From positions 62,001 to 126,000 of the forward strand of contig NZ_CANLZV010000004.1 of assembly GCF_947495665.1 (NCBI RefSeq): a stretch of 64,000 nt of DNA, read 5' to 3'. Origin of the DNA: an uncultured Sunxiuqinia sp. (GTDB taxonomy: Bacteria; Bacteroidota; Bacteroidia; Bacteroidales; Prolixibacteraceae). The translations under genes and the position numbers were made by a program. Shown here piece by piece: positions 979 through 25,683 of this stretch; position 1 is the stretch's first letter; each line of letters opens with the position of its first letter. The notes under the pieces are model-generated. The model did not search any database. It saw nothing but the letters and a program-made list of their open reading frames with translations, and had not been told where the DNA came from.

Positions 979-3261
979 ATGAGCAAATTATTCTTACTCC
1001 TTACCTTCTTTTTGGCTGCAATCCATGCTTCAGCTGGTAACCAAAGTGAACTGTGGCAACAAATACAAGGTTCAAAACATGATACAAGCCGTTTTCGTTT
1101 ATTCACGGAATTAGCCGAGTATTACGATAAGCTTCCCCTACCCGATTCGGCCATTTTCTACAGCCAAAAGGCCATTCAAACAGGGCAAAGTGTTCAGCCC
1201 AAAAAGTCAGAAAAGACAAACCACAACTTGCTACTAAGCCGATGTTACCGGGTACTTGGATTTTCATTCTTCATGCAATATCAACTGGATAGCACCTATC
1301 ACCACTTTCATCAGGTGGAGCAAATTGCCCGGCAAGAACTCAGCCAAGAAGATAACAAGCACCAGAAGCGCTATCAACAATTTTTAGCAGAATCACTCCG
1401 GAACATGGGAGTTATTAATTACCTAAAAGGCAATCTGGATCAATCCACCCAGCTGTACCTCCAAGCCATTCCCATCAGTGAAGCCTTACAAGACACTTCG
1501 GAGCTAGCCAACTCCTACTCAAAATTAGGCCTTACCTACAAAAAACAAGGAAAACTGGCAGAAGCTCTAAAATATTTCTACGAATCACTTCACTATTACG
1601 AACGTCTTAATCAACCCAAAGAAACAGCTGTCGCCTTCCTCAACATTGCAACCATTCACTACGATCAGAATAATCACGAAGAGGCCATTGAAGGCTATAA
1701 GCGCACCTTACAATTATTTAAAGCACAAGGCGATGAAAGAGGGGTCGCCATTTGTTTGTCCAATATTGGTAAGTCCTATGGGCACCTTGAAAATTTCGAC
1801 CTGGCTTTGCAGTACGTACAAAAAGCCTTGGAAGTAAACCAAAAAAGGAATAATAAAGCGGGCATAGCCAATAACTATGGAAGCATCGCTATTCTTTATG
1901 AGAATATGGGCAAGTACGAACAAGCTTTAAGCTACTATAAAAAGACCTTAAAACAACAACAAGAGTTGAATGACATTCCCGGCTTGATCAACATTTATGG
2001 GAATCTGGCTTCTGTTCATATCAATCTGGCCAATACGAGTACGAGTTCGGCGCTTCGAGAATCACACCTCAACAGTGCCATTGCCTATGGAACTAAAAGC
2101 CGCCAACTTGCTCCTAACTTCAATGCCCCATTCCAACAAAAGGCAGTTACAATAGCACTTCGTGAAGCCTATACCCAAAAAGGAGATTACAAAAAAGCAT
2201 TGGAATTTGCCAATGCAATTATTGAATTGAATGACACCATTTTCAATAAAAGTAAGGCGGAGGCAGTTGCTGAGGTAGAAGCGAAGTACGAAACAAGCCG
2301 GAAAGAACAACAGATTGAACTTCAAAAGAACCAGCTAGCTCAAAAAGAAATCTTGCTCAGTAAAGAACGCCTGTGGCGCAACTCGGCGATTATTGCCTTT
2401 TCCCTCACCTTGCTGGTTCTAATTCTGATATACCACAACTATAGCCAGCACAAGAAGAACAATCGCATCCTGAGGCTAAAAAATCAGTTGATTGAAGAAC
2501 AGCGGAAAGAAATTCAGAAGCAAATGGACAAGCAATGCGAAACCAACAAACGCCTGAACGAGCTGGTCTTGTTTAAAGAAAAAATCACCGGAATGATTGT
2601 CCACGACTTAAAAAGTCCGTTGAATGGCATTATCAATAGTGGGTATATTGATGACGAAGAGCTTCGCAGTGAACTTGTCATTCACTCCGGTTACGAAATG
2701 CTCAACCTGGTTGATAACATGCTCAACGTTTATAAGGCCGACAGTACCGAAATGAAAGTAAATCCAAGGAAGAATGACTTATTCCAATTGGTTGAAAATG
2801 AAAAAACCGGACTGCTCTTTCTGCTCAACGAAAAAGAATTAAGCCTCAAAATTGAAGACATCACCCGCCCTGTTTTCTTTGCCGACAATCATTTAATCAA
2901 ACGGGTAATTGCCAACCTGCTGAGCAATGCCGTTAAGTTTTCACCGCAAAAAGGAACCATTACGGTTCGCATAGAGCAACCAGGCGAAACAGATATCCGG
3001 ATCGGGATTCGCAATCAAGGGCCTCACATTCCGGAAGAAAAACAGCACCTGATTTTTGAAGAATTTGGACAACATGACTTACGACAACTCGGAGTAACGG
3101 CCTCCACCGGACTGGGACTGACGTTTTGCCAGTTGGCAATAAAAGCTCATGGCGGAACGCTTGGCGTAAACTCATCGGAAGGCAGCGAGACGGAATTCTG
3201 GTTCAAATTACCCAACAGTGTTGTTGAAGAAGAAACTGAAAAATCAATCGAAAATAATTGA
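979..3261 (+). CDS. TPR-containing sensor histidine kinase
   Basis: Membrane sensor kinase of 760 residues. Residues 1-20 form a signal peptide. Residues about 30-430 are helical TPR repeats (spaced Y-A-L/N-I-A patterns), expected in the periplasm. A coiled coil at about 430-465 leads to one membrane span at about 468-488, then a second coiled coil and the kinase core. The H-box motif MIVHDLKSPLNGI places the phospho-acceptor at His542. The N-box is LIKRVIANLLSNAVKFS and the G2 box is STGLGLTFC. The G1 box reads IRNQGPHIP, with Asn where Asp is classical; this variant is not rare in TPR kinases of this phylum. No response regulator is adjacent, so it is an orphan whose partner cannot be named. 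Family assignment is firm; ligand and regulon are unknown. Confidence 0.9.
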   Translation: MSKLFLLLTFFLAAIHASAGNQSELWQQIQGSKHDTSRFRLFTELAEYYDKLPLPDSAIFYSQKAIQTGQSVQPKKSEKTNHNLLLSRCYRVLGFSFFMQYQLDSTYHHFHQVEQIARQELSQEDNKHQKRYQQFLAESLRNMGVINYLKGNLDQSTQLYLQAIPISEALQDTSELANSYSKLGLTYKKQGKLAEALKYFYESLHYYERLNQPKETAVAFLNIATIHYDQNNHEEAIEGYKRTLQLFKAQGDERGVAICLSNIGKSYGHLENFDLALQYVQKALEVNQKRNNKAGIANNYGSIAILYENMGKYEQALSYYKKTLKQQQELNDIPGLINIYGNLASVHINLANTSTSSALRESHLNSAIAYGTKSRQLAPNFNAPFQQKAVTIALREAYTQKGDYKKALEFANAIIELNDTIFNKSKAEAVAEVEAKYETSRKEQQIELQKNQLAQKEILLSKERLWRNSAIIAFSLTLLVLILIYHNYSQHKKNNRILRLKNQLIEEQRKEIQKQMDKQCETNKRLNELVLFKEKITGMIVHDLKSPLNGIINSGYIDDEELRSELVIHSGYEMLNLVDNMLNVYKADSTEMKVNPRKNDLFQLVENEKTGLLFLLNEKELSLKIEDITRPVFFADNHLIKRVIANLLSNAVKFSPQKGTITVRIEQPGETDIRIGIRNQGPHIPEEKQHLIFEEFGQHDLRQLGVTASTGLGLTFCQLAIKAHGGTLGVNSSEGSETEFWFKLPNSVVEEETEKSIENN

Positions 3262-6012: not shown

Positions 6013-6729
6013 TTAAATGAACTTCTCGCGTTTTTGCAGGTTAAACAGGCCGTAGAGGGTAAACAACAGGGTACCGACGATCAGAAAAATACGGTTTTTC
6101 AGCACGATGCCTTCCCACACTACTTCATTCATATTTCGGGGAACACTGAGTGGATTGAGGAACACATTCCAGTAGGTACGCTGCAGGGCATCGCTAAAGA
6201 TGAGCAGCACCACCCCCAGAATGACCATCACCACCGCAGTTCCGTTGCCATTTTTAATGATGGTGGAAAACATAAACGCCAAACTGCCCAGAAACAAAAC
6301 CGGAAACATGAGTTGCCGGGCTATTTCAACTAAATTAACGGGCGTAAGGAAAATAGAACTCACCCCGGCAAAGGCCAGCAGCAACAGGAAAACCAATACA
6401 AAAACCAGTACGAGCCGCACCAACCACACTTTGTAGCGGTAGTCGGGTATGCCGAATAAAATTTCGAGAATACCGGCGTCCAAATCGTTCTGAATTCCAA
6501 AGGTCATGGGGTAAAAAATCAGCAGCATGGCCGGAAAGATCAGGATGCCATACACAAACTCTTCATCAGGCACCTCGCCATTCCAAACGGCAGTAATGGC
6601 CACAAAAGCAAAAAAGGCAAAAGCAGCCAGTAAAAACCAGATAAAGCGGCCCCCAAAGATGATCCGGAAATTGTATTGAATCATTTTACGGATCAGGTTT
6701 ATCGTATTCTTTAATTTGAGTCTATTCAT
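6013..6729 (-). CDS. ABC-2-type transporter permease
   Basis: 238-residue inner-membrane protein with about six hydrophobic spans: near 27-47, 58-80, 100-125, 138-160, 165-182 and 212-230. The first cytoplasmic segment and the conserved run DLDAGILEILFGIP between spans resemble ABC-2 permeases of gliding/heme-exporter type. It is the last gene of the seven-gene export operon, 105 bp after the RND-ABC fusion. That fusion carries an ATPase domain with no other dedicated permease, so this protein is the natural membrane partner (inference). Substrate unknown. Confidence 0.8.
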   Translation of the reverse strand: MNRLKLKNTINLIRKMIQYNFRIIFGGRFIWFLLAAFAFFAFVAITAVWNGEVPDEEFVYGILIFPAMLLIFYPMTFGIQNDLDAGILEILFGIPDYRYKVWLVRLVLVFVLVFLLLLAFAGVSSIFLTPVNLVEIARQLMFPVLFLGSLAFMFSTIIKNGNGTAVVMVILGVVLLIFSDALQRTYWNVFLNPLSVPRNMNEVVWEGIVLKNRIFLIVGTLLFTLYGLFNLQKREKFI

Positions 6730-6834: not shown

Positions 6835-9800
6835 CTATTTCAAATCTTTAATCAGGCACAAGTAAGCGTCTTCCAAAACCGGCTTGGCCTCAATGGCGTC
6901 CTCCGCAGGTTGCTCATGGCTCAGCATGCGCACCCGAATCTTATCCTCCACCCGCATGTGGTGGGTCACCATGTGTTTGTTGGGCATTTGGTCGAACTCC
7001 GCCACATCCACATCAAACTGCCACACCAGCTTATCGGCCAGGTTCACCATCGCAATCGGAGTTCCGTGATACTTCACCCGCCCGCGGTTGATGACAGCCA
7101 CCTGGTTACACGAGCTGGAAATATCTTCAATAATGTGGGTGGAAAAGATCACGATTCGCTCGCGGCTCAACTCGACCAACAGGTTCCGGAAGCGAATCCG
7201 TTCGCGCGGATCCAGACCGGCAGTCGGCTCATCCACCACCAATATTTTAGGCAGATGAAGCAGGATTTGAGCAATCCCGATTCGCTGCTTCATTCCTCCG
7301 GAAAATGACCCGATTTTGTCGCCGCGTTTTTCCCACATATGCACCGACTTCAGTACATATTCAATGCGCTCCCGACGGGCTTTGGCATCGGTCAGTCCTT
7401 TCAGCAATGCCTGATAATCCAGGAATTCCTGCGCCGGCATATTTTCATAGGTTCCAAATTCCTGCGGCAAATAGCCAATCAGTCCCTGCAACTCTTCCCG
7501 CTTTTTCTGGGTGTCAATTCCATTGATCCACACCTTGCCATAGCTCTGCTCAAATATTCCGCAGATAATCCGCATCATGGTCGATTTTCCGGCTCCGTTG
7601 GGCCCCAGCAAACCAAACATGCCGGTGCCTATCTCCAGCGACACCCCATCCAGAGCTTTAAAGGGCACTTTTCGTTTCCCGATAACCGGAATTTGTTTCA
7701 CCAGGCGCAAGGTGGTCCTCCGCAGGTTTCCAAAGCGTCCGGTAATCCGGTCAATATTCACTTTCTCATCATACAGGCGCCGTGCCGTAACCGAAATAAG
7801 CAAGGCCAAATACCACAGAACGGCAAAGGCCACCACCAAGCCAATAAAGTTGGTTTTCTTCCACAGCACAAACAGCTCAACCAAAGGCAGCAACCAAAAC
7901 AGGAACAGCTTGCTGTATTTCTGAATGGCCTTGAACAAGCCGCCGGAGCTTGCCGCTTGCCGGTGTTCCAGGTAAATGGCTACCGGTTTCCAAATTTGGT
8001 TCAGGTAGAGGTAAACCATAACCAACATGAAGCTGATCCAGAAAGCTGAGGCGAGGTAGAAAAACGTAAAATAGATCAGGAACGCCAGCAGGGGCAGTTG
8101 CCAAATCAGCTGATCAAATTCCCGGATGGACCGGTATTCCTTTTCCAGCCCGGCCCGTCGACGAATGTTCAATCCTCCAGTCCATTCGCGGCTAAAGCGT
8201 CCCGGCCGGTCATAAATTTTCACCAGATTTTGAATAACGATATGCACCCGGTCATCGGGCCCAATCAGTCGGGTTCCCGCTTTTTTCAAGCTGTTTAGCA
8301 CAAACCAGGTCATCCCCGGTACCAGCACCACGGCCAACACTGTATCCAGCAGTTGCCAGGTCAGGGCATCCACCTCCAAGTAAATCCAGCTCAGGATGGC
8401 TCCCATGGCCAGCAGCTGAAAAGCTTTCAGTTTCCAGTCCAGTTGGTAAAACCACTCCAAGGCACTTTCCAGTCCCGAATAAAAGGTCGGAATAAAGATG
8501 AGGGTCAGCACCGTACTCAAGGCTAATCCGCCAATAACAATAATGGCAAAGGGAGCCCCAATCACGCTGACATACTCGGCTTGTCCCATGGCCAGCGGCA
8601 CCATGGCCACAATGGTGGTAATGGTGGTAATCAGAATGGGACGCACCCGCGACAAGCCCGCGGTCATCAGTGCCCGCGGACGACGATAGCCCTGCTTGCG
8701 CAAAATGTTGCTGTAGTCAATCAAAATAATCCCATTGTTGACCACCACACCCAGCAAAATCAGGAAGCCAATCATGGTATTGGCATTGAACAAGCTGTTG
8801 CCGGTAAGCAACAGGGCCAGCAGCGAACCAATAGCGGCCAGCGGAATGGAAAACAGCAACACAAAAGGCGTGGCAAAGGATTCGAAAACCGAAGCCAGAA
8901 TCATAAAAATCAGAATGATGGCGGCCAGAATCAGGAACTTAAACTCGCCCAGGTCGTCTTCTTCATGAATCACCTCGGCAGCAACGCCCGATGGAAAGTT
9001 ATAGGAGGCAATCAGCTCATCAATTTCGTAACGGTAGGAAGCCAGCAAATCATTGGACTGCTGTGCCTCATCAATCAAGCTGTAGGTAATTTCAATTTGT
9101 TTTTCCTGGTTCACCCGGTTAATTCCGGCCAGCCCACGGGCATACACCAGCTGGGCAAAATCCTGCAGGTCGTGCAGCCCTCCGGCAGCATCGCTCACTT
9201 GCAACAGCTTCAGGTCATCCATCGTTCGGGTGTCGTCCTCCAGCGGGTCTTCCTCCCCCTGCCGAATGATAATTTCATACTCATCCACCCCTTGGTTAAA
9301 CTGTACACCGGTAGAAATTTCGCCCGAAAACGAATTCAGCTCGCTGGTAACCTGGCTGATGTTGATGTTGTATTCCGTCATCAGCAAGGGGTCGAACAGC
9401 ATGTGCACTTCCGGCCGGTTATCCGACACGTTCAGCCGCACCCGGTTGATGAAATCCAGTTCTTCCAGGAAGTACTCAATGTCTTCGGCTACGGTCTGCA
9501 TCATCTCGAAATCCTGCCCTTTCAGCACCACTTTTTCTTCGTTGCTGCCAATCCCCAGCAAGCGTTGGAAATTACCCATCATATTTCGACCGCCACCGCC
9601 AAAGCCGCCACCACCACCGCCGGAGCTGCTTTGTTCAAACGAGATTTCGGCCGAACCGATATTCCGGGTCAGCTCACTGATTGATGACTTAATTTCAGCA
9701 AAACTACGGCCATCTATTTTTTCAAAATCCTCCACCAGCTTCACCGTCACCACTGCTTCTTCTTCCTCAATGGTGCTAAGCACATCCTGCTTTTCCTTCA

Positions 9801-11565
9801 CCTCCTCCAGCTTTTCTTCAATCTTGCTAACCGTTTCATCAGTCGTTTCCAGGCTCGACCCGGAAGGCATGGTCACATACAGCTGAATTTGATCGTTCTC
9901 CACTTCCTGCAAAGAACTGACACTGATTGCCAAACTGGCAAACACCGTGATGAAAAAGATTGCCACCGCGCCCAGAATTGTTCCGGCCGGATTGCGCATG
10001 CACGATTTCAGCAACAACATGTAAATCTGCACCATCCGGTTGTTCGTGGTCAGCTTCTGGAATGCAATGTCCTTTCCCTTTTTTCGTTTCAGAATGAAAT
10101 GAACAGCCATGGGCACAAAAAGCAAGGCCACCAACAGCGACACCAGCAAAGTTGAAATGATGGAGACACCCACATGCTTACCCAGCATTTCAATCATGAA
10201 GTTGGACGAAAACACGAACGGCAGAAAGACCGTGATTGTGGTGAGCGTAGCCGCCAGAATGGAGCGCCAAACTTCCGTGGTTCCTTGTGTTACGGCCGAA
10301 TCGGCCTCCTGTCCCTGGCCGGCAAGCCGGTAAATATTTTCGAGCACCACCACACTGTTGTCGAGCAGCATGCCGATAGCCAGCGCCATCCCCACCAGCG
10401 TAAGGCTGTTCAGGGTAATGTCGTAAGCATAAAACAGGTTGAAAGCCGTGAACACCGACACCGGAATTGCCAGCGCGATGAAGGCCACAATGCGCACGTT
10501 TTTCAAAAACATCCACAACACAAACACGGCCATCAAGCCCCCAATCAGCGCCAGGTTGATGATCTGATCAATGTTCTCCTCCATCGTTTCGGCGGAGTTG
10601 TCCTGCACAAAGAGCTGAACATCTTTTCGGGCCAGCTTTTCATTCAATCGTTCAACCAGCTCCTTCGTTTTATGCGACAATTCAATCTGGTTGGCCTGCG
10701 AGTCATTAATCAGCCGAATGGTAACCGCATCCTGCCCATTCACGCGGCTGTAGCTGGTTTCTTCTTTCACCCCAAACCGAATATCGGCAATATCCTTTAG
10801 CAGAATGGGACCTTCGGCAACCACCAGCCGTTCCAGATCACTCACCTGCGTATATTCAGCCGTAACATGAACGAAGTAATGCTTTTCCTTTTCGCGAAGC
10901 GCCCCCACATAGGTACGCGACTGCGAATTTTGCGAGAGCAGCGAACGAATCTGTCCCGGAGTAATGTGATAAGCTTCACAAGCCTCCATATCCAGAATCA
11001 CCTCGATGGATTTTTCTTTTCCGCCAAAGACATTCACCCCGGCAATCCCATCCAGGTTCTCCAAATCGGGAGCAATCTCCTGATCCACCAAATTCCGAAT
11101 CCGGTCTACTCCACCACCACCACGCGCTTGCAGCTCCATAAACTGGCTGCTCATCTGAGACAGATCCACCCGGTTAACACTTACCCGAACGCCTTCGGGC
11201 AAATCTCCCTGTATTTCATTGATTTTTTCCTGCAGCTTGAGGTAGGCGAAGCTAAAATCAACCCCTTTCTGATAATAGACAATCACGGTTCCCATGCGGG
11301 ACGTGATGGTAGATTCGAGCGACTCAATCCCTTCCAGCGTTCCCACGGCTCCTTCAATGGGAATGACCACCTCATTTTCGAGGTACTCCGGATCAGCTTC
11401 CTGCGGTGCAACAGCCTGAACAAAGAGGAAGGGAAGCTCTACATTGGGCAGTAGCTCCACCCCCAGCTGTTTGTAGGAAACATAGCCCAAAAGGGTTAGT
11501 CCTAAAAACAACATGCTAATCAGGGTCTTTCTATCGATGATAAATTTCATTGGTCTATTTTCCAT
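6835..11565 (-). CDS. RND efflux pump fused to an ABC transporter ATPase
   Basis: One uninterrupted frame of 1576 codons. Residues 1 to about 1030 are a complete RND permease: first span near 10-30, large periplasmic loop with porter-type sequence, spans 2-6 near 335-490 with GMALAIGMLLDNSVVVLENI as TM4, a second periplasmic loop, and spans 8-12 near 870-1025 with VVVNNGIILIDY. The TM4 D-N pair and TM10 N-N (instead of AcrB D-D and K) match the HAE-like branch. Residues about 1045-1270 add about six more membrane spans. Residues about 1290-1576 are a full ABC ATPase: Walker A GPNGAGKST (about 1320), signature FSGGMKQR (about 1418), Walker B ILVVDEPTAGLDP (about 1440), H-loop FSTHI (about 1473). 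A glycine-rich tract lies near residue 645. RND pumps use ion gradients, so an attached ATPase is unexpected. An alternative start is the Met at 11550. Confidence 0.92.
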   Translation of the reverse strand: MENRPMKFIIDRKTLISMLFLGLTLLGYVSYKQLGVELLPNVELPFLFVQAVAPQEADPEYLENEVVIPIEGAVGTLEGIESLESTITSRMGTVIVYYQKGVDFSFAYLKLQEKINEIQGDLPEGVRVSVNRVDLSQMSSQFMELQARGGGGVDRIRNLVDQEIAPDLENLDGIAGVNVFGGKEKSIEVILDMEACEAYHITPGQIRSLLSQNSQSRTYVGALREKEKHYFVHVTAEYTQVSDLERLVVAEGPILLKDIADIRFGVKEETSYSRVNGQDAVTIRLINDSQANQIELSHKTKELVERLNEKLARKDVQLFVQDNSAETMEENIDQIINLALIGGLMAVFVLWMFLKNVRIVAFIALAIPVSVFTAFNLFYAYDITLNSLTLVGMALAIGMLLDNSVVVLENIYRLAGQGQEADSAVTQGTTEVWRSILAATLTTITVFLPFVFSSNFMIEMLGKHVGVSIISTLLVSLLVALLFVPMAVHFILKRKKGKDIAFQKLTTNNRMVQIYMLLLKSCMRNPAGTILGAVAIFFITVFASLAISVSSLQEVENDQIQLYVTMPSGSSLETTDETVSKIEEKLEEVKEKQDVLSTIEEEEAVVTVKLVEDFEKIDGRSFAEIKSSISELTRNIGSAEISFEQSSSGGGGGGFGGGGRNMMGNFQRLLGIGSNEEKVVLKGQDFEMMQTVAEDIEYFLEELDFINRVRLNVSDNRPEVHMLFDPLLMTEYNINISQVTSELNSFSGEISTGVQFNQGVDEYEIIIRQGEEDPLEDDTRTMDDLKLLQVSDAAGGLHDLQDFAQLVYARGLAGINRVNQEKQIEITYSLIDEAQQSNDLLASYRYEIDELIASYNFPSGVAAEVIHEEDDLGEFKFLILAAIILIFMILASVFESFATPFVLLFSIPLAAIGSLLALLLTGNSLFNANTMIGFLILLGVVVNNGIILIDYSNILRKQGYRRPRALMTAGLSRVRPILITTITTIVAMVPLAMGQAEYVSVIGAPFAIIVIGGLALSTVLTLIFIPTFYSGLESALEWFYQLDWKLKAFQLLAMGAILSWIYLEVDALTWQLLDTVLAVVLVPGMTWFVLNSLKKAGTRLIGPDDRVHIVIQNLVKIYDRPGRFSREWTGGLNIRRRAGLEKEYRSIREFDQLIWQLPLLAFLIYFTFFYLASAFWISFMLVMVYLYLNQIWKPVAIYLEHRQAASSGGLFKAIQKYSKLFLFWLLPLVELFVLWKKTNFIGLVVAFAVLWYLALLISVTARRLYDEKVNIDRITGRFGNLRRTTLRLVKQIPVIGKRKVPFKALDGVSLEIGTGMFGLLGPNGAGKSTMMRIICGIFEQSYGKVWINGIDTQKKREELQGLIGYLPQEFGTYENMPAQEFLDYQALLKGLTDAKARRERIEYVLKSVHMWEKRGDKIGSFSGGMKQRIGIAQILLHLPKILVVDEPTAGLDPRERIRFRNLLVELSRERIVIFSTHIIEDISSSCNQVAVINRGRVKYHGTPIAMVNLADKLVWQFDVDVAEFDQMPNKHMVTHHMRVEDKIRVRMLSHEQPAEDAIEAKPVLEDAYLCLIKDLK

Positions 11566-11612: not shown

Positions 11613-14600
11613 TCAATTCTTATTTTTGATCCGGTCTTTAATTCCCTCAATGGCATCGTACATACACGGAATGACAATCAAAGTCAGCAAGGTGGAGGTC
11701 ACCAAACCACCAATAACCGCCAGCGCCATGGGCGAACGCAGCGAGGCACTTTCACCAATTCCCAGGGTTAGTGGGAACAAGGCCAAAATCGTTGTTAAGC
11801 TGGTCATGATGATCGGGCGAATCCGTTGCTGTCCGGCTTGTAAAATTGCCGCGCGCCGTGCCATGCCCTCCTGCCGCAATTGCAGGATGCGGTCGACAAA
11901 GATGATGGAGTCGTTCACGGCAATACCCACCAGCATGATGATACCGATGTAAGCCATGATGTTGAGTGTTTTTCCCAGCAGGAAGAACACCAAAACAGAG
12001 CCCACCACCGCCAACGGGATGGTCAGCAAAATCGTGAACGGGTGCAGCAACGACTCAAACTGCGAGGCCAACACCATATACACCAGCACAATGGATAAAA
12101 GCAAGGCGAAGCTCAGGCTGGCCATAGACTCCTGCCGTTTTTCTTCTTCACCACTAATGTTCACTTGGTAGTCGGGAGGAATGCTCATGGGAGCCAAGGC
12201 CGCACGAATTTCCTTGACAGCCTGATCCAGCGGGACATCCTTATCCAGCTGGGCCGTAATTTTTCCAATCCGGTTTTGGTTGCGGCGGTACACCTCTTTG
12301 GGTGATTGTCCGATATGAATGTCCGCCAACTCGCTGACCATAAACTCCTGGTTATTGCTTGAAATCATCAGTTCGTCCAACTGCGCCAATCCCTTATCCG
12401 GAAGCTTCAGGGTAATGTCCTGCATTTCGCCCTGCCGTTCCACCTGCCCGGCCAGCTTTCCTTCCAGCTGATCCTGAATTTGCGACACAATGGTGTTCAC
12501 ACTCAGGTTATACATCCCGGCCCGCAAACGATCCACCATGATTTCCACTTCAGGCGAACCTTCTTCCAGCGACGACTCAAAATTGTACATGCCCGGCAGC
12601 CCTTCAACCCGCTGTTTCACTTCAGCAGCAAGCGATTCAATCACCGCCAGGTCTTCTCCCTGCACTTCAATAACCAAAGGAGCCTCGTCGGTTCCCATAA
12701 TACTTTTCAAGGCCGTTTCATCCTGATGATAACTGATTTCCATCCCCGGAATTTCACCCACGGCCTGGCTGATTTTGCGGATGGCAGCCGTTGAGATCAG
12801 TTCGCTTTCCGGAGCCAAAATGATTTTTATGCTGGCGGTATTTTCGCCTTCAAAAATATCGGTGGTAGAGCTGCTGATGCCACTGGTTGGCCCCACATGG
12901 CTGAAACTGGTTTCCAGGTTGTCACCCAACAGTTCAGCCACAATGGCTTCCATATTTTCCACAGCGGCCGTAGTACGAGCCAGGCGTGTGCCTTCCTGCA
13001 TTCGAATTTCGATACTGAATTCGCGGGTTTCTGTTTTCGGCATAAATTCGGTACCAATAAAAGGAACCAGCAAAGCGGATCCGGCCACCAGAATAAGTGC
13101 ACCCAGGATAACCACCCATTTTACCTTCAGCACCTTGTCCAGGAAATTCCCATAGCCTTTCACCTGAACCGAGCGTGATTTCACCTGCTTCTTCCTGTTC
13201 TTATAAAACAGGTTGAACAGCATGGGAATAAACAGAATGGCCACTGCCAGGGATGAAACCAATGAAAAAGCAACCGTCCAGGCCTGATCTTTAAACAGCT
13301 CGCCCGACGCACCATGCAGGTAAACAATGGGCAAAAACACGATGATCGTGGTGATGGTTGATGCGGTGATGGCACCTCCCACTTGCGAGGTTCCCAGAAT
13401 CGCGGAATCGCGCACCGATAGACCCGACTCGTGGTTTCGGAAAATGTTTTCCATCACCACAATGGCATTGTCAACCAGCATGCCGGCCCCCAGCGCCAGC
13501 CCTCCCAAAGTCATTATATTCAGGCTAAGACCGTTAAAATACATGAGGTTGAAAGTGGCAATGATTGAAATGGGAATGGCAACACTGATAATCAGCGTGC
13601 TTCCGGCCCGCCGCAAGAACAGAAACAGCACAAACACGGCTAATAAAATTCCCAGCAAGGCCGACTCTTCCACCTCATTAATGGCATCGCTGATAAAGCT
13701 GCCCTGGTTGGTCACCATTTGCAGTTGGTAGCCGGGCAGCGCTTTTTGAATGTCCGCAATGCCTTCGTTGATTTGCTCAACGGCTTTCACCGTGTTAAAC
13801 TTCGTTTCCTTATAAACAGAAAGGCCCAAACAACGCTTGCCATTCAGGCGAACAATATTCTCAGGATCCTTATTCTGAAAACGAACGGTGGCCACTTCAC
13901 GCAGGTAAATGGGGGCAAAAGCCGCCTCGGCATTATCGGCCGTAATTTGTTTATAGCCTACAATCACGTTTTCAAAATCCTCAACATCCGTTAGCAGGCT
14001 CACCCCTTTCACCACATAGCGCAGGCCCATCTCTTCAATGCTTCCGCCCGAAATATTCTGATTGAAGCTGGCAATACGAGTGCTGATTTCATCCAGCGAC
14101 AAGCCAAAAGCATCCAGCAAGTATTCGCTGGTTTCAATGAGCACTTCCACTTCCTGTGCACCCGACACATCCACTTCGGCCACCCCTTCCAAACGAATCA
14201 GCTCGTTGCGAATGTAGTTGTCGGCAACCTTGCGTAAGTCGTTCATATCGTCGTTGGTGGCATGGCTCAAGCCCAAGATCATTACCGGTGAAGTGTTTGG
14301 ATCGTGCTGGGTAATGTTGATGGCATCAATATCCTGGTTTTGGGCAAAGGAGGTCACGGCTTTCTGTAAATCCAGAAAGGCATCGTCCATGTCCTTGTTC
14401 CAGGCATATTCAACCGTAATCTGGGCGCTTCCCACTTTGGAAACCGACGAAACTTCCACCACATCCGACTGCCGGATTGCCAAAGCTTCGAGGTTTTCCA
14501 CAAACTGATTTTCCATTTCCTCCGGCGGCCGTTCACCCGATTCCAGCTCAATAAACAGGCGCGGGTTATTCAGGTCCGGAAACAGGTCAACGCCCAGCTT

Positions 14601-14693
14601 ATCGTAGGAGATGTAGCCCAGAAGCACCACGCCAAGCACCATCATCAAAACAGTAACCGGATAATTGACCGAAAATTCGCTTAACTTCTTCAC
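11613..14693 (-). CDS. RND efflux transporter permease subunit
   Basis: 1026 residues, the usual full length for an RND pump. The N-terminus KKLSEFSVNYPVTVLMM begins span 1. Two large periplasmic loops carry porter/docking sequence. TM4 contains GGLALGAGMLVDNAIVVMENI, with a single acidic residue in the relay (D-N). TM10 contains IIMLVGIAVNDSIIFVDRI, and TM12 ends in LTLIVIPCMYDAI. It should export a substrate from the periplasm or outer leaflet using the proton or sodium gradient. It lies 12 bp after the adaptor gene and 47 bp before the RND-ABC fusion. The two RND proteins could form mixed trimers, as MdtB/MdtC do (inference from gene order). Confidence 0.95.
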   Translation of the reverse strand: MKKLSEFSVNYPVTVLMMVLGVVLLGYISYDKLGVDLFPDLNNPRLFIELESGERPPEEMENQFVENLEALAIRQSDVVEVSSVSKVGSAQITVEYAWNKDMDDAFLDLQKAVTSFAQNQDIDAINITQHDPNTSPVMILGLSHATNDDMNDLRKVADNYIRNELIRLEGVAEVDVSGAQEVEVLIETSEYLLDAFGLSLDEISTRIASFNQNISGGSIEEMGLRYVVKGVSLLTDVEDFENVIVGYKQITADNAEAAFAPIYLREVATVRFQNKDPENIVRLNGKRCLGLSVYKETKFNTVKAVEQINEGIADIQKALPGYQLQMVTNQGSFISDAINEVEESALLGILLAVFVLFLFLRRAGSTLIISVAIPISIIATFNLMYFNGLSLNIMTLGGLALGAGMLVDNAIVVMENIFRNHESGLSVRDSAILGTSQVGGAITASTITTIIVFLPIVYLHGASGELFKDQAWTVAFSLVSSLAVAILFIPMLFNLFYKNRKKQVKSRSVQVKGYGNFLDKVLKVKWVVILGALILVAGSALLVPFIGTEFMPKTETREFSIEIRMQEGTRLARTTAAVENMEAIVAELLGDNLETSFSHVGPTSGISSSTTDIFEGENTASIKIILAPESELISTAAIRKISQAVGEIPGMEISYHQDETALKSIMGTDEAPLVIEVQGEDLAVIESLAAEVKQRVEGLPGMYNFESSLEEGSPEVEIMVDRLRAGMYNLSVNTIVSQIQDQLEGKLAGQVERQGEMQDITLKLPDKGLAQLDELMISSNNQEFMVSELADIHIGQSPKEVYRRNQNRIGKITAQLDKDVPLDQAVKEIRAALAPMSIPPDYQVNISGEEEKRQESMASLSFALLLSIVLVYMVLASQFESLLHPFTILLTIPLAVVGSVLVFFLLGKTLNIMAYIGIIMLVGIAVNDSIIFVDRILQLRQEGMARRAAILQAGQQRIRPIIMTSLTTILALFPLTLGIGESASLRSPMALAVIGGLVTSTLLTLIVIPCMYDAIEGIKDRIKNKN

Positions 14694-14705: not shown

Positions 14706-15764
14706 CTATTTGATGATTTTTACTTTCGAACGGGCACGCAAGGTCTCAAAGCCTTTCACCACCAATCGGTCGTTGGCTTTCAAGCCGGAAGTAATCTCCA
14801 CCTTATCCTGATTTTCATAGCCCAGGGTCACCTGTTTTTGCTCAGCCGTTCCCTGCTCAACCACAAAAACCGACTTGCCCCGCTGGTTCGAGATGATCAC
14901 CTCTTTCGGAATGACGATGACACTGTCTTTCCGATCAAGCACAATCTCGGCCTGCACAAACATTCCCGGCCGCAGCTTCAACTCGTCATTATCGATGCTC
15001 AACTTTCCTGTGAAAGTGCGCGTTTCGGTGCTGATCGCCGGCGATAATTCCCGAACCATCCCGTGCAAAGTATCTTCGGGCAAAGTGTAATTCATCACGC
15101 GTACATCCTGGTTCGGCTCCACCTGGTTGATGTATTTCTCCGGCAGGTTCACTTCCAGCTGCAACTTCTCATAGCTCATCAGGCTGACCACTTCGGTGCC
15201 GCTGGTTACTTTTGTTCCCTGAGTGAAATAAGGCAATTGGGTAATCACCCCGCCAAACGGTGCACGCACATTCATCTTTTCCATCTGAATTTTAGCCAGT
15301 TCATAACTGTCGCGTGCATTAACGGCCGACACCTCGGCGTTACTCAATTCACTTTGTGTTACCCCACCCTTGTCGAAAAGCGATTTTTGCTTGGTATAGT
15401 TTTGCTCTGAAATTTTCAGGTTCAGCTCTTTGGACTGCATCCCAAGGTTATTGACATACTCTTCATCCTCCAACTTCACAATCACCTGTCCCTGATTGAC
15501 CCGGTCGCCCAGCATAAACGGTTTGCCGGTCTTCGGATTGGTCGCCAGGGTATAGCGACCGGCCATCTCCGTTGTCAGCGTAGCCTCTTTGGTCGCCACC
15601 ACGGTACCTGTCGTATTAATGGTTTGCTCGATAAAGCCAGGTCTCAACTCCTCAACCGAAACCGGGATGGCAATTTCAGTTTCCGAATCAGCACTTTGGT
15701 TGTTGCACGCAGTCAAACCCAGTAGTGCGGATAAAATTACGGTAGTATACAAATTGATCTTCAT
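14706..15764 (-). CDS. RND membrane-fusion (periplasmic adaptor) lipoprotein
   Basis: 352 residues. The signal peptide ends in the lipobox L-T-A-C (Cys about 20), so the adaptor is anchored by lipid in the inner membrane. It shows the usual HlyD/AcrA order: first half of the lipoyl/barrel-sandwich domain (TGTVVATKEATLTTEMAG), a short alpha-helical hairpin with KQKSLFDKGGVTQSEL, the second lipoyl half (VRAPFGGVITQL), a beta-barrel domain, and a membrane-proximal domain with LRPGMFVQAEIVL and VIPKEVI. It connects the RND pumps to the TolC-like protein encoded just upstream (26 bp gap). Identification is firm; specificity unknown. Confidence 0.95.
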   Translation of the reverse strand: MKINLYTTVILSALLGLTACNNQSADSETEIAIPVSVEELRPGFIEQTINTTGTVVATKEATLTTEMAGRYTLATNPKTGKPFMLGDRVNQGQVIVKLEDEEYVNNLGMQSKELNLKISEQNYTKQKSLFDKGGVTQSELSNAEVSAVNARDSYELAKIQMEKMNVRAPFGGVITQLPYFTQGTKVTSGTEVVSLMSYEKLQLEVNLPEKYINQVEPNQDVRVMNYTLPEDTLHGMVRELSPAISTETRTFTGKLSIDNDELKLRPGMFVQAEIVLDRKDSVIVIPKEVIISNQRGKSVFVVEQGTAEQKQVTLGYENQDKVEITSGLKANDRLVVKGFETLRARSKVKIIK

Positions 15765-15790: not shown

Positions 15791-17275
15791 TTAGTTATTA
15801 CTTTTTTGAATTAGTTCTTCGGGAACAATGCCTCGTCCCAGCTCAAAGTCGTACAGGGTTTGAATCTTCAGGTTGAGCAGTTCTATTTTATAATCGATTA
15901 AAGACTGTGCGTAAGCCATTTTCTTTTCCGAAAGCTGGGTTTGAAACAGGTTCAGGTCCATGCTGGTCAGGTCGCCATTGGCATAGCGCTCCAGGTTGAT
16001 CTCGTAGGTCAGCTGGGCATTCCGCTCGTTTTGCTCGGCGATGGTAATTTGGTTTTTGAGGTTCTGCAACGAACGATACACCTGACGAATATCCATGATG
16101 ATTTGAATTTTCTGCTGTTCAAAACTCAATTCCTGGGTTTTAATCACAGCTTCCTGGGCTCTCATTCGGGATTTTTTCTCGCCCCAGTCAAACAAGGGCA
16201 CATTGAACGAAAGCGAAACCCGCGGGTTGTTCGTTGGATTCTGATAGATGTTGGACAACTTGGGATCATCGCCAATGATTCCGACCGAAAGGTTCATCTC
16301 CCCTTGAAACTCATTCAAGGCGTTGGTGCGAATCAGATCAAATTGCGAAGTTTCAATGTCAATCTCCCGCTGGCGAAGCTCCATGCGCGAACCCAATCCA
16401 TAATTAATGGCATTTTTCAAATCGACCGCAACAGGCGTGGCATCCACATTAGCCATCACGGCAATCTCCTCAAAAATATCCATGCCAATGTACTGCTTGA
16501 ACTGGTCTTTATAATTTTCCAGACTCACCTGCTGGTTTTGTACGTTCGACTTGGCGGTGGCATAGTTCAATTCAGCCTGATACAGCTCCTCGCGGGCAGC
16601 CAGTCCGGCCTCTACCTTGTTTTTTGTGATCTCGTAACTTTTTTCGGTATTCGCCAATTCGTCCTTCGAAATATTCAGGCTCATTTGAGCCATGTACACA
16701 TTGTAGAAATACTGTGTCACCAACTTCTCCAGATTAAGCAGCTGCATGGCATAGCTCAGGTTCGAGTTTTCCAAATCCAGTTGTAGTTCCCTCAGCTGCA
16801 GTCGAAGCCGGTTGTAGGTGAACAGCGGCTGAGCCAAGCTGATGTATAAATTATTGGTAAACGACCGATCTTCCACATTATTAATGTCACTGTTGCTCTT
16901 TTGCCAGCCAAAGCGGTTAACCAGCGAAACCGTTCCGTCGGTCAGCAAAATAGGCTGCGACACGGTAAAGGTTCCCGACGAACCAAACGACTCATTGGTA
17001 TACCAGGAAGAATAATAATCATCAAACGAGCGGGTACGGCTGTATTCCACCGGGTTCAGGCTGAGCGAAAACTGCGACTTCAATGCTGCTTTCTGGGCAT
17101 TGAGCGACTCCTGCGAACGCTCCAGATTCAGCAAGGATCGCCGAATATCGGGGCTGTTTTGCGAGGCAATTTCCATCGCTTTCTCCAGACTTAGCAGCTG
17201 TTGGGCCCAAAGTGCGCTTACCGGAAACAAGACCAGCAAAATCAGGAACCTAAGTTTAACGAAAGTAGATTTCAT
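15791..17275 (-). CDS. TolC-family outer-membrane efflux protein
   Basis: 494 residues with a cleavable signal peptide ending near A-L-W-A-Q (about 25). Two homologous halves each contain long helices with heptad-like spacing (LEKAMEIASQNSPDIRRS and LKNAINYGLGSRMELRQREI). Two short beta-rich segments (PLFTYNRLRLQ and VPLFDWGEKKSRM) are typical of outer-membrane-factor barrel strands. It should form the trimeric channel for the adjacent adaptor and RND pumps. It lies 15 bp after the ABC permease/peptidase-like gene, so the outer-membrane channel is cotranscribed with an ABC module as well as the RND module. Confidence 0.94.
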   Translation of the reverse strand: MKSTFVKLRFLILLVLFPVSALWAQQLLSLEKAMEIASQNSPDIRRSLLNLERSQESLNAQKAALKSQFSLSLNPVEYSRTRSFDDYYSSWYTNESFGSSGTFTVSQPILLTDGTVSLVNRFGWQKSNSDINNVEDRSFTNNLYISLAQPLFTYNRLRLQLRELQLDLENSNLSYAMQLLNLEKLVTQYFYNVYMAQMSLNISKDELANTEKSYEITKNKVEAGLAAREELYQAELNYATAKSNVQNQQVSLENYKDQFKQYIGMDIFEEIAVMANVDATPVAVDLKNAINYGLGSRMELRQREIDIETSQFDLIRTNALNEFQGEMNLSVGIIGDDPKLSNIYQNPTNNPRVSLSFNVPLFDWGEKKSRMRAQEAVIKTQELSFEQQKIQIIMDIRQVYRSLQNLKNQITIAEQNERNAQLTYEINLERYANGDLTSMDLNLFQTQLSEKKMAYAQSLIDYKIELLNLKIQTLYDFELGRGIVPEELIQKSNN

Positions 17276-17290
17276 ACGTATTTCTTCTTT

Positions 17291-20200
17291 TTATTGTTTA
17301 ATCAGTTTAACGGCATCGGCCACTACCATGCGGGCAGTTGACTGGTTGGTCAGCTCAATTTTGGCCGTATCCGGAGAAAAATAGTAACCACCCAAATGGT
17401 TCCATCCCTCCTCGGCTGTTTTCAAGTCAACCACGACTTCTTCATCCCCATCATCATGATGTACAATAAAGTGGTATTCGCCATCATTACCGCCACGACG
17501 CCCACGTCGGTTATCTTTATACACATAGGCATACACCTGGTAATAGCCCACTTCGGAGAGGGGCACATTCCAGGTAGCCACCTTATCGCCTTCGCCCGCC
17601 CGCAGGTAGTAAGCCGAGCGAATGTAGGCGCCATAAAAACTGGAATGGGTTGTCAGCGTCCAGGTTCGTGGAGCCCGCCAACTGGAGAACCCGGCGTATT
17701 TGCCGGTCGATTTTTCTTCTTTAATCAGCAATTTGCGCAGCAAGCTGGTCTCGGCCTCTCCCCTTACTTCAAAGCCCGGATCTTCATTGTCCAAAATAAT
17801 TTCATTGTCTTCGGCAATGCGAACCGGCTGATCCACAATGCGCTCTCCTTCATAAGGAATCGCCTTTTTATCTTCTTCTATATTATCCAAGGGCAAGCGA
17901 ATTTCAGACGGGATATTTTTAGAGGTCAGCGTATTGACATTGGCTCCACGAGGAGTGCCATTAAGCAAATAGCTCACCTCCTTGGTTTGGTTTCCTTCCA
18001 GGCGAATCAGCTTACTAATGGTTTCCGGGGAACCACCCATCCCGCCAAAACGACCACCAGGCCCTCCTCCCAAACGAAAGTCAACCGACACAATTCCTTC
18101 CACATCTTCGGTGTTGCTTATCTTGAATTTGACCATGGTTTTGAGTTGATCGCCATCCAGCACATTCACCGCATCCACCGGACCAACCAAAAAGGCCGGC
18201 AAGCGAGTACTGCTGAACCAATCTTCCATATAAGGAATCAGATCAATCCCAAATTCTGCCCAAATGGCCTCGTTAAAATCTTCGATGCTTGAAGCGGTAA
18301 ATTTCACTTCCCGAAGGTAATCATACAGAAAATCTTCAAACGCCTCATCTTCGGCCTTGGTCTTGATGATGGAGAACAGGGCTTTTCCTTTTTGCTGAAT
18401 GACATTATCAATGATTTGCTTTTCATCCGGATCATCCAGAATTTCTTCAAAGCTGCGTGATAAAAGAGCCAGGTTGGCTTGCTCATCTTCCGACATGCCT
18501 TGCAGGTCGCGCATCCACCCCATCCGCATGTCTCCGGTCGATTGCTTTTTGTAGGCTTCAAACACCCGGTCGGATACCGGCCAGCGCTCGGAGCGAATGT
18601 AATAGGCATAGTTGTAAAACAGGGGGAATGCATAAAACGCATTTTGTGTCTCCTCAATCTCCAACTCGCCCTGCGACCGGTTAAAATCAGGCCTGCCCTG
18701 CTCGCGGGTAAAGGTTGCCAGGAAGTTTTGAAACACCTGGACTTTCTTCTCTGCGGTGGTCAGGTTTTCATCGTTTCGCCCACCATAGCGACGGCGTTGA
18801 TTCAGGCGGCCGTTAAAGTCAGCTTCGCCCACCAACAAGCCTTTTTCAGGGAATAAGATCATTTCGGGTTGAATTTGCTCACGCGCCCCACTTAAAATGC
18901 GTTCATACGAATAGAACTGCACCGGAACTTCTACCAAATCAAGCCGCTCAAACGGATAATACAAATCAACATCCCGTTCAAAATCCTGAATTACTTCGGT
19001 AATAACTCCCGGAATGGTGTCCTTAATTTCTTCGAAAAACCCGGAAAAATAATCATGTCCTTTCCGGTAATAAATGTTGAAATCCAATCCGTCAATTTCT
19101 TTGTTCATCCGCTCATACGACCCAATGGCCAGCGAAATTTGCGACTGCGCATGCGAGTTGGTAAACACAAACCGTCCTTCAGTTTCCTCCACCAGGCCCT
19201 GCGAAATTGCGGTCAGCCCCGGACGCGAACTGACTTCAAGCCGATACGTACTAAACTGTCGCGACAACCATTGCTTATTTTTCACTCCAAAGCCCGCGCC
19301 GGGAATTGGGTACCAGTTATTTTCGCGGGTCAGCAGCACATAGTCCGGAGTAATAAAAGCATGTCGTTTATCAATCTGATACATGAAGTTGCGATAGGCT
19401 TCTTCCCGGGTTTCATCATCAATATCCAGGAAGCAAGCGGCCTCATTAATCTTTCCGGCGTATGAGAATGTGATTTCCAACTGCTGCCCCGGCCGCACGC
19501 TCAGCCCAGTTAGTTCAATCAGGCCAAGCTTACGTTCAAAGGCCTGAGCTTGTCCGTCCACCGTAAGCTGTTCCAATTTCAGAGCAGGATTCAAACTAAA
19601 CAAAACCGTAGAAATCGGTTCATTCCGGGTATTTTGAGCCTTCAATCTGGCTTCACACACAATCTGTTCGCCCCGATGCTCTAACTGAATATCGTAATTC
19701 GTAATGGTCAGTTGGGGTGTTCCCAGGTATTCATCGTTCAACCGAATCATTTCTGCCCGCAGCTCCTGATCCTTCAAAAAAGAACCGACATGCAAACTTC
19801 CCAGGTAAATGCCCCCCGCCAAACAAAGGGTTCCGAAAACCAGCGAAAACAGACGCATGGTTTCTGAATGCGGCAACCGACGTAAAAGCAGGATGGTATA
19901 AAAAATAAAAGCAATGCCGAAAACCAGGTACATTCCCCGGTGAACAAGAATGGTGGATAAGTTGCCAAAGCCGACAAAATCGGAAAAAGTCAAAGGAATA
20001 TTAAAAGCCATGTAATCGAACAGGTAATAATACTTATCCTGAAGATAAAACAGCGAAATCGCAACATACCCCAGCAGGACGACAAAAGTAACTGCCTGGT
20101 TGCGAATAAGCGACATAACCAAAAAGGAAAGCCCCATGATAAACACCAAGGTGGGCACACTGATTACCAAGAAATAGTAGAGGTAAGCCAACCAGTTGAC

Positions 20201-20626
20201 ACTGGTGTTTTGCGTAATCAAGTTAAATATGAGGGCAATTGTAAGGATGATCAGGTTCAGCACAATAAAAACAACCAGGTTACCCAGCGTTTTGCCAATC
20301 ACATATTCGCCGTTGGTCATCGGACGCATATAGATCACCTCGGTGGTATCCAGCTTCTTATCCCGTTTCAGAAAGTCGGAAGCCAGGAAAATGGCGATCA
20401 CCGCCTGCACCACATTCAAAAACAACAGATTGACATACGGAATGATTGAAGGAAGCCCTTTCATGGCCCACTCTCCGGCACCTCCATTCGACTCAATCAA
20501 TACGCCAAAATTGAATAAAGAGAGGAAGATCATCGCCAGAATCGCGAAAATCCGGAAAAACCAGCTGCGCAACAAAGTCGTTGTTTCGTAACGGGCAATT
20601 GAGCGAATATTGTGTATCGAAATCAT
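17291..20626 (-). CDS. ABC-2 permease fused to inactive M1-peptidase-like domain
   Basis: 1111 residues. The N-terminal region to about 285 carries about seven to eight membrane spans with ABC-2 permease character (LASDFLKRDKKLDTTEVIYMRP). Residues about 300-850 resemble the beta-sandwich and helical parts of M1 aminopeptidases, including a LVEVPVQFYSYER segment near 560. No HExxH zinc motif and no GxMEN motif can be found, so peptidase activity is unlikely. A glycine-rich loop (LGGGPGGRFGGMGG) lies at about residue 860. The C-terminal about 140 residues (ending VVADAVKLI) resemble the golvesin/Xly-type beta domain. Membrane permeases joined to M1-like domains are known in this phylum. The ATPase partner is encoded 93 bp upstream. 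The role may be substrate capture or delivery in the periplasm (inference). Confidence 0.85.
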   Translation of the reverse strand: MISIHNIRSIARYETTTLLRSWFFRIFAILAMIFLSLFNFGVLIESNGGAGEWAMKGLPSIIPYVNLLFLNVVQAVIAIFLASDFLKRDKKLDTTEVIYMRPMTNGEYVIGKTLGNLVVFIVLNLIILTIALIFNLITQNTSVNWLAYLYYFLVISVPTLVFIMGLSFLVMSLIRNQAVTFVVLLGYVAISLFYLQDKYYYLFDYMAFNIPLTFSDFVGFGNLSTILVHRGMYLVFGIAFIFYTILLLRRLPHSETMRLFSLVFGTLCLAGGIYLGSLHVGSFLKDQELRAEMIRLNDEYLGTPQLTITNYDIQLEHRGEQIVCEARLKAQNTRNEPISTVLFSLNPALKLEQLTVDGQAQAFERKLGLIELTGLSVRPGQQLEITFSYAGKINEAACFLDIDDETREEAYRNFMYQIDKRHAFITPDYVLLTRENNWYPIPGAGFGVKNKQWLSRQFSTYRLEVSSRPGLTAISQGLVEETEGRFVFTNSHAQSQISLAIGSYERMNKEIDGLDFNIYYRKGHDYFSGFFEEIKDTIPGVITEVIQDFERDVDLYYPFERLDLVEVPVQFYSYERILSGAREQIQPEMILFPEKGLLVGEADFNGRLNQRRRYGGRNDENLTTAEKKVQVFQNFLATFTREQGRPDFNRSQGELEIEETQNAFYAFPLFYNYAYYIRSERWPVSDRVFEAYKKQSTGDMRMGWMRDLQGMSEDEQANLALLSRSFEEILDDPDEKQIIDNVIQQKGKALFSIIKTKAEDEAFEDFLYDYLREVKFTASSIEDFNEAIWAEFGIDLIPYMEDWFSSTRLPAFLVGPVDAVNVLDGDQLKTMVKFKISNTEDVEGIVSVDFRLGGGPGGRFGGMGGSPETISKLIRLEGNQTKEVSYLLNGTPRGANVNTLTSKNIPSEIRLPLDNIEEDKKAIPYEGERIVDQPVRIAEDNEIILDNEDPGFEVRGEAETSLLRKLLIKEEKSTGKYAGFSSWRAPRTWTLTTHSSFYGAYIRSAYYLRAGEGDKVATWNVPLSEVGYYQVYAYVYKDNRRGRRGGNDGEYHFIVHHDDGDEEVVVDLKTAEEGWNHLGGYYFSPDTAKIELTNQSTARMVVADAVKLIKQ

Positions 20627-25636: not shown

Positions 25637-25683
25637 ACTGACAATTGATAACATTGAATTCGGAACTTAAAACTAAGAAAACA

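What the first reader, a model, noticed from the sequence alone, without database searches (positions are those of the whole stretch)
6835..11565. Single-chain fusion of an RND pump with a complete ABC ATPase
One unbroken frame encodes a full 12-span RND permease (about 1030 residues), six extra membrane spans, and an ABC ATPase with intact Walker A, signature, Walker B and H-loop. RND pumps are established as ion-gradient driven and ABC ATPases energise separate membrane proteins, so one polypeptide holding both is unexpected. I know of no described protein with this order, but I cannot search. Possible meanings: ATP-dependent gating of an RND pump, or tethering of an ABC module to a tripartite exporter.
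Basis: partly seen in the sequence, partly recalled or inferred. Interest (0 to 1): 0.88.

Follow-up and report, generated by a model that had tools for sequence, protein, structure and literature searches.

The report
RND pump fused to ABC ATPase
Some bacteria of the phylum Bacteroidota carry a seven-gene export machine in which a pump of the proton-driven RND kind and the ATP-burning motor of a second, different transporter are one protein chain, a combination for which we found no earlier description.

Summary
Window 6835-11565 (-) is one open frame of 1576 aa: a complete RND permease (residues 6-1030), six extra membrane spans and an ABC ATPase (NBD) with its motifs. It is not an assembly accident. 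In a sample of the order, 52 of 393 genomes carry the linker: in one frame of 1515-1640 aa in 44, cut by contig ends in 8, split between the halves in none.

Two things were missed. First, the fusion is gene 6 of a conserved seven-gene operon: NBD1, ABC-2 permease with M1-like and golvesin regions (TMD1), TolC, adaptor, RND1, RND2-NBD2 fusion, and a six-span ABC-2-like protein (TMD2, 6013-6729). In 395 genomes across the phylum, linker, TMD2 and full-length TMD1 occur in the same six. Second, the NBD looks interrupted: its first-strand motif lies before the last four extra spans.

So the fused ATPase most likely powers its own ABC permease pair and bolts it to an RND tripartite pump, rather than replacing the pump's proton drive. 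This is inference. Both RNDs keep the TM4 Asp, in a relay variant also seen in an unfused RND of the same genome. Nine literature searches listed no RND-ABC fusion.

The parts
6835..11565 (-). RND2-NBD2 fusion, 1576 aa: RND permease (res 6-1030), six extra spans (res 1046-1261), ABC ATPase (first-strand motif res ~1107-1118, remainder 1300-1576)
7783..8430 (-). stretch with the six extra membrane spans of the fusion (res 1046-1261): TM13-14 before, TM15-18 after, the NBD first-strand motif
   Evidence: hydropathy and loop charge; alignment A1; coordinates
8212..8247 (-). NBD first-strand (beta-1) motif, residues 1107-1118, separated from the rest of the NBD by four spans
   Evidence: best match to the NBD1 beta-1 profile at this site in 34 of 35 fusion rows, second best in the other
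6838..7668 (-). main part of the fused ABC ATPase (NBD2), res 1300-1576
6013..6729 (-). TMD2, 238 aa, ABC-2-like membrane protein directly downstream; proposed partner of the fused NBD
   Evidence: co-occurrence
11613..14693 (-). RND1, sister RND permease, 1026 aa, no ABC domain
14706..15764 (-). periplasmic adaptor (membrane fusion protein), TIGR01730 RND_mfp
15791..17275 (-). TolC-type outer membrane channel (OEP)
17291..20626 (-). TMD1: ABC-2 permease + M1-peptidase-like region without the HExxH zinc motif + Golvesin_C domain, 1111 aa
20720..21655 (-). NBD1, separate ABC ATPase, 43% identical to the fused NBD

Best explanation
The seven genes encode one envelope-spanning exporter with two motors. 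SHOWN: a complete RND permease and a complete ABC ATPase are one chain, and in every locus where the sequence reaches, the chain lies with a second RND, an adaptor, a TolC channel, a second ABC ATPase and two ABC-permease-like membrane proteins. INFERRED: NBD2 (fused) and NBD1 pair as the ATPase dimer of an ABC exporter whose membrane part is TMD1 plus TMD2. RND1 and RND2 form a mixed trimer, as MdtB and MdtC do, docked to the adaptor and TolC. ATP hydrolysis moves or extracts a substrate from the cytosol or inner membrane through TMD1/TMD2 onto the periplasmic M1-like/golvesin part of TMD1. The RND trimer picks it up there and pushes it through TolC using the proton gradient. Fusing NBD2 to RND2 fixes the stoichiometry and holds the two transporters side by side, so the substrate is handed over rather than released. 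The extra spans, four of them inside the NBD, bolt the ATPase to the membrane next to the RND. The substrate is unknown.
For: (1) Gene order is conserved: of 12 loci with a complete fusion gene, 12 have TMD2, RND1, adaptor, TolC and TMD1, and 11 have NBD1 (the twelfth starts at a contig edge). Gaps in the window are 12-105 bases; in relatives they run from overlaps to 351 bases. Seven loci from four further families, two of them in another class, have fusion, RND1, adaptor, TolC (one partial) and TMD2 in 7 of 7. (2) On one sample of 395 phylum genomes, linker, TMD2 and full-length TMD1 each occur in the same 6, so at those thresholds neither permease-like protein was seen without the fusion. 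(3) Among the 60 solved chains listed, the ABC matches of the fused NBD are ABCA-type, which energise ABC-2-type membrane parts (recalled). (4) TMD2 is modelled (pLDDT 78.3) as eight helices that I read as a connecting helix, TM1-2, a short coupling helix (82-92) and TM3-6. Six of its seven best Foldseek hits are chains of the ABC-2 systems NosDFY and KpsMT. (5) Both NBDs keep their catalytic motifs. (6) The fused RND keeps Asp402, Arg973 and Thr980 in 28 of 28 rows. Its D-N/N-N relay recurs in an unfused RND of the same genome (L086), so the variant need not come from the fusion.
Against: TMD2 has no significant Pfam match (ABC2_membrane_3 at E 4.1). Its profile does not match TMD1 (probability 0.4%, E 0.17), and its Foldseek hits are not below E 0.001 (best 0.15). 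The linker+NBD model is poor (mean pLDDT 63.7, pTM 0.34), so neither the interruption of the NBD nor its docking is shown structurally. NBD2 is not specially close to NBD1: 43%, against 45.6% to an ABC ATPase on a Rhodococcus plasmid. No complex, transport, ATPase or substrate datum exists. Both RNDs lack the AcrB Lys940 equivalent and the second TM4 Asp, so their proton coupling is itself assumed.
Confidence: 0.6

Rival explanations
1. ATP acts directly on the RND: the fused NBD (alone or with NBD1) gates or drives the RND conformational cycle, and TMD1/TMD2 serve as scaffolding or a sensor.
For: The NBD is covalently attached after the last RND span, and the extra spans could transmit motion. 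Both RND subunits carry a reduced relay (Asp-Asn in TM4, Asn in place of Lys in TM10).
Against: The D-N/N-N relay also occurs in an unfused RND of the same genome (L086) and D-N in two more (L088). Two permease-like partners are present wherever the sequence reaches, so the NBD has a conventional job.
Confidence: 0.2
2. Mechanotransmission: the ABC part does not carry substrate across the membrane. As in MacB- or FtsEX-type systems (recalled), ATP cycles move the large M1-like/golvesin part of TMD1, which pushes or loads substrate already in the periplasm or outer leaflet into the RND-adaptor-TolC conduit. This is compatible with the tether and overlaps with the best explanation.
For: TMD1 has roughly 800 residues beyond its membrane part (by eye), without HExxH in 12 of 12, conserved with the operon. 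RND tripartite pumps remove compounds from the periplasm (PMC9629497, passages seen).
Against: The permease proteins resemble ABC-2 exporters rather than the MacB/FtsX type: PF12679 in TMD1, NosDFY/KpsMT chains as structural neighbours of TMD2. NosDFY, however, may itself do mechanical work (recalled).
Confidence: 0.25
3. Simple gene-fusion convenience: the join has no meaning beyond co-expression, and the RND pump and the ABC transporter act separately on related substrates.
For: Fusions of adjacent operon genes are common (general knowledge).
Against: Split between the halves in 0 of 44 complete cases (the 52 carriers fall in 22 family labels), and present in another class. The linker is under purifying selection and keeps invariant residues.
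Confidence: 0.12
4. Assembly or annotation artefact.
For: None for the join. One relative (G010) has a frame change inside the RND half.
Against: 44 of 52 carriers in the order sample have one full-length frame. Isolate genomes such as Sunxiuqinia indica, Labilibacter sediminis and Mangrovibacterium lignilyticum have it.
Confidence: 0.01

Closest known systems
HAE-1/MdtBC-type RND tripartite pumps (AcrB, MdtB, CmeB)
   Same: Complete ACR_tran domain, adaptor and TolC in the operon, best solved-structure match MdtB (9lyq, E 1.2e-67) then CmeB; two RND genes with one adaptor and one channel. MdtBC as a rare heterotrimer: PMC8277102, passage seen.
   Different: One RND subunit ends in six further spans and an ABC ATPase; relay is D-N/N-N instead of the AcrB D-D/K (AcrB residues recalled).
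ABC-2/ABCA-type exporters, NosDFY in particular
   Same: NBD nearest to ABCA1 among solved ABC chains listed; ABC-2 domain PF12679 in TMD1; TMD2 model nearest to NosDFY chains; a separate NBD gene.
   Different: One of the two NBDs is the tail of an RND permease and appears interrupted by four spans.
ABC-2 permease fused to M1 peptidase (TC 3.A.1.145; Myxococcus Q1D520)
   Same: TMD1 has the same order, N-terminal ABC-2 part then M1-like part (PMC3924187, passages seen).
   Different: TMD1 here lacks HExxH in 12 of 12, adds a Golvesin_C domain, and sits with RND genes.
MacAB-TolC
   Same: ATP-driven exporter working with an adaptor and TolC (recalled).
   Different: MacB is a single ABC half-transporter with its own adaptor; here RND and ABC modules are both present.

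Membership tests
RND (HAE-1-like) permease | complete ACR_tran domain with both porter halves | tested here: met
   Pfam profile 2-1018 of 1021 over residues 6-1030
RND (HAE-1-like) permease | TM4 Asp of the proton relay | tested here: met
   Asp402 in 28 of 28 fusion rows
RND (HAE-1-like) permease | AcrB-type full relay (second TM4 Asp, TM10 Lys) | tested here: not met
   Asn403 and Asn943 in 28 of 28; same variant in unfused RND L086
RND (HAE-1-like) permease | NCBIfam curated cut-off | tested here: not met
   best NF033617 457.9 bits against a cut-off of 1250; the sister RND1 is also below, 605.4
RND tripartite system | adaptor and TolC channel in the operon | tested here: met
ABC ATPase (NBD) | Walker A, signature, Walker B, H-loop | tested here: met
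   35 of 35 rows; Q-loop pattern LPQ[DE]F in 28 of 35, and the five of the other seven that were printed read LPQAF
ABC ATPase (NBD) | contiguous domain starting with the beta-1 strand | tested here: not met
   by sequence: 110-209 residues lie between the beta-1 motif and the rest in 35 of 35 rows; structure model too poor to confirm
ABC-2 exporter | six-span ABC-2 membrane domain as partner | tested here: inconclusive
   TMD1 meets PF12679 (35 bits, cut-off 27.2). TMD2 has no significant Pfam hit; its best fold neighbours are NosDFY/KpsMT chains at E 0.15-0.69
M1 peptidase (TMD1) | HExxH zinc site | tested here: not met
   0 of 12
RND or ABC system | measured PMF- or ATP-dependent transport | not testable with these tools
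   needs experiment

The most novel reading that the evidence does not exclude
A hybrid primary-secondary transporter: one chain couples ATP hydrolysis and the proton gradient in a single concerted export cycle. The NBD is opened at its first hairpin and threaded through the membrane, so that its motion is transmitted directly to the RND trimer as well as to the ABC permease pair.
Probability: 0.25. Interest if true: 0.92.

Novelty: new variant of a known kind. Interest (0 to 1): 0.72.

Why it matters
RND pumps and ABC transporters are taught as separate classes with separate energy sources. A conserved family in which the two are one chain, inside an operon that supplies both sets of parts, is a natural system for asking whether a two-step export route (cytosol or inner membrane to periplasm, then periplasm to outside) can be run by one physically coupled machine. 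It also offers an NBD apparently split by membrane spans, which would be a new way (to my knowledge) of attaching an ATPase to a membrane protein.

Tried and rejected
Artefact or frameshift at the join: rejected; one relative (G010) has a frame change inside the RND half near residue 130. Proton relay lost because of the fusion: not supported after the own-genome control, since unfused RND L086 has the same D-N/N-N pattern. TMD2 as a recent copy of TMD1's membrane part: not supported. Structure of linker plus NBD: model too poor to use; its Foldseek hits say ABC ATPase only. Conserved neighbours that would name the substrate: ten frames flanking the operon in the window were compared with flanking frames of L028-L040; the four matches are 22-30% identity hits to two frames of one locus, L029. 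Other flanks were not compared with each other. Fusion on plasmids: 0 of the best 5000 records have one place covering 80% of the linker+NBD query (record limit reached). G085 (E 1.8e-4) and G481 (E 9.3e-4, 31-aa frame) were dropped as chance; G085 was checked, G481 judged from its row only. Literature: nine searches (one search listed 12 of 32 papers; searches found none) listed no paper whose title or abstract start describes an RND-ABC fusion. Passages of PMC8277102 (first 300,000 of 747,799 characters held), PMC3924187, PMC7997004 and PMC9629497 were seen by term search only. The library holds open-licence papers only; subscription papers and protein-database annotations were not seen.

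Sample notes: one search dropped 5 duplicate loci (28 rows kept, the window's own gene present as window and L001). Searches use 35 rows with that same duplicate. In one search the script counted 33 of 35 as best-at-site; L024, missed by the pattern, also has its best site there, giving 34; FUS_L078 ranks it second. Hydropathy found 4 spans in the insert in 20 of 35 rows, 3 in 11, 2 in 3 and 1 in 1, so 'four' is the majority reading, not unanimous; two rows (L074, L075) have a short 110-residue insert. Loop charges for the window fit the proposed topology except that the short loop before TM18 has 2 K/R of 4. TMD1 was searched at E <= 1e-10, linker and TMD2 at E <= 0.001.

Second check of this report: mended the span counts, the number of unfused control RNDs (12, not 11), the TMD2 helix description, one coordinate, and the wording of absolute claims; checked the partial frames.

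Full report
WHAT IS THERE. The frame at 6835-11565 (-) is open for 1576 codons. Pfam places a full AcrB/AcrD/AcrF domain on residues 6-1030 and a full ABC_tran domain on 1306-1449. Between them lie two spans (1046-1065, 1072-1093), a segment of 59 residues with 14 K/R, four spans (1153-1171, 1175-1192, 1218-1235, 1240-1261) and a 39-residue segment with 12 K/R. Walker A, signature, Walker B and H-loop patterns are present in 35 of 35 fusion rows. The nearest named records are Sunxiuqinia at up to 91% identity, of the Prolixibacteraceae, Marinilabiliales, Bacteroidota.

IT IS REAL AND CONSERVED. 27 of 41 genomes match at E <= 1e-100: 22 with one frame of about 1570 aa, four cut at contig ends and one, G010, with a frame change near residue 130 inside the RND half. 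The other 14 of 41 lack it at that threshold. Named records include Sunxiuqinia, Gaoshiqia, Mangrovibacterium, Plebeiobacterium, Labilibacter and MAGs labelled Tannerella. A profile of the linker alone (residues 1036-1300, alignment A1) matches 53 of 393 genomes in the order, one of them (G085) by chance. Of the 52 others, in 22 family labels, 44 have a single frame of 1515-1640 aa and 8 are cut by a contig end, judged from coordinates and, for five, contig lengths. None is split between the halves. Across the phylum 7 of 395 match, one of them (G481) judged chance from its row; the other six include another order and another class. The system is therefore patchy and uncommon in the phylum. 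Purifying selection acts on RND, linker, NBD and TMD2 alike.

THE NBD LOOKS INTERRUPTED. A profile of the separate NBD1 family aligns to the fusion only from its 17th position, at residue 1303. The missing first 16 positions, the beta-1 strand motif, were sought along each fusion with a simple substitution-matrix profile. The best site was the segment around residue 1107 (VHIVIQNLVKIY in the window), before the last four spans, in 34 of 35 rows, and second best in the other. In alignment A1 the matching residues I74, V80, K81, Y83 and R85 are invariant in 18 of 18. So the membrane spans appear to be inserted in the first hairpin of the ATPase. The structure prediction was too poor to confirm this: mean pLDDT 63.7, with a strand predicted at residues 1107-1111 but at block pLDDT 39.

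THE OPERON. Around the fusion, on the same strand with gaps of 12-105 bases, lie an ABC ATPase (NBD1); a 1111-aa protein with ABC-2 permease, M1-like and Golvesin_C regions (TMD1); TolC; adaptor; a second RND (RND1); the fusion; and a 238-aa membrane protein (TMD2). TMD2 has no significant Pfam match. Its model (pLDDT 78.3) has eight helices that I read as the order of an ABC-2 permease, and six of its seven best Foldseek hits are chains of NosDFY and KpsMT, at E 0.15-0.69, which is suggestive only. In 12 loci with a complete fusion gene the order is the same, NBD1 being beyond the contig edge in one. Seven loci from four further families agree wherever the stretch reaches. On the same 395 genomes TMD2 is found in 6 and full-length TMD1 in 6, the same six that have the linker. 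Seven more genomes match only about the last 115-145 positions of TMD1, its Golvesin_C part. Ten flanking frames of the window showed no consistent partner in the flanks of the named loci.

ENERGY. In AcrB (numbering recalled) the proton relay uses two Asp in TM4, a Lys in TM10 and an Arg near TM11. The fusion has Asp402-Asn403, Asn943-Asn944 and Arg973 in 28 of 28 rows. RND1 has Asp-Asn in TM4 and Asn followed by Asp or Asn in TM10 in the 10 rows. Of twelve other RND frames of the same genome without an ABC tail, one (L086) has the same D-N/N-N pattern, two (L088) have D-N in TM4, six have D-D and three have D-G or D-V. The variant is therefore not by itself a sign that ATP has replaced the proton drive.

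INTERPRETATION. The fused NBD resembles ABCA-type NBDs and was not seen without ABC-2-like permease partners where the sequence reaches. The simplest reading is an ABC exporter (NBD1 + NBD2, TMD1 + TMD2) built onto an RND tripartite pump, the join being the RND2-NBD2 chain. Two RND genes with one adaptor suggest a mixed trimer as in MdtBC; with one RND2 per trimer there would be one NBD2 to pair with one NBD1. The M1-like part of TMD1 lacks HExxH in 12 of 12, so a binding or mechanical role is likelier than peptidase activity. All of this paragraph is inference.

KNOWN WORK. ABC-2 permeases fused to M1 peptidases are described in Myxococcus (PMC3924187, passages). MdtBC is noted as a rare RND heterotrimer (PMC8277102, passage). 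Nine searches of the held library listed no paper on an RND-ABC fusion, judged from titles and abstract starts. Subscription papers and protein-database annotations could not be searched.

VERDICT. The best-supported meaning is physical coupling of an ABC exporter to an RND tripartite pump. Each half belongs to a known family; the composite, and the membrane-interrupted NBD, are new to me and to the searches made.

Noticed in passing
window 17291-20626 (-): ABC-2 permease with an M1-like region without HExxH (0 of 12 relatives) and a Golvesin_C domain; found at full length only in the genomes that have the fusion, in a sample of 395.
   Followed up: partly
window 11613-14693 (-); L086; L088: RND permeases with an Asp-Asn TM4 pair and Asn in place of the TM10 Lys; a relay variant shared by fused and unfused RNDs of one genome.
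   Followed up: partly
L074 11348-15943 (+), L075 10552-15078 (+): Fusion homologues with a shorter 110-residue insert in the NBD, apparently lacking two of the four inserted spans.
   Followed up: partly
L112 about 10343-10800 (+): In this relative (G010) the fusion gene changes frame near residue 130 of the RND half, so it is either a sequencing error or a broken copy.
   Followed up: partly
window 9589-9621 (-), residues 649-659 of the fusion: Glycine-rich loop in the second half of the RND part.
   Followed up: no
window 979-3261 (+): TPR-repeat protein with a histidine-kinase ATPase domain beside the operon on the other strand.
   Followed up: no
window 24002-26373 (+): By eye a sensor-kinase-like frame followed by a response-regulator-like frame beyond the NBD1 end of the operon (one search printed their starts).
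   Followed up: no
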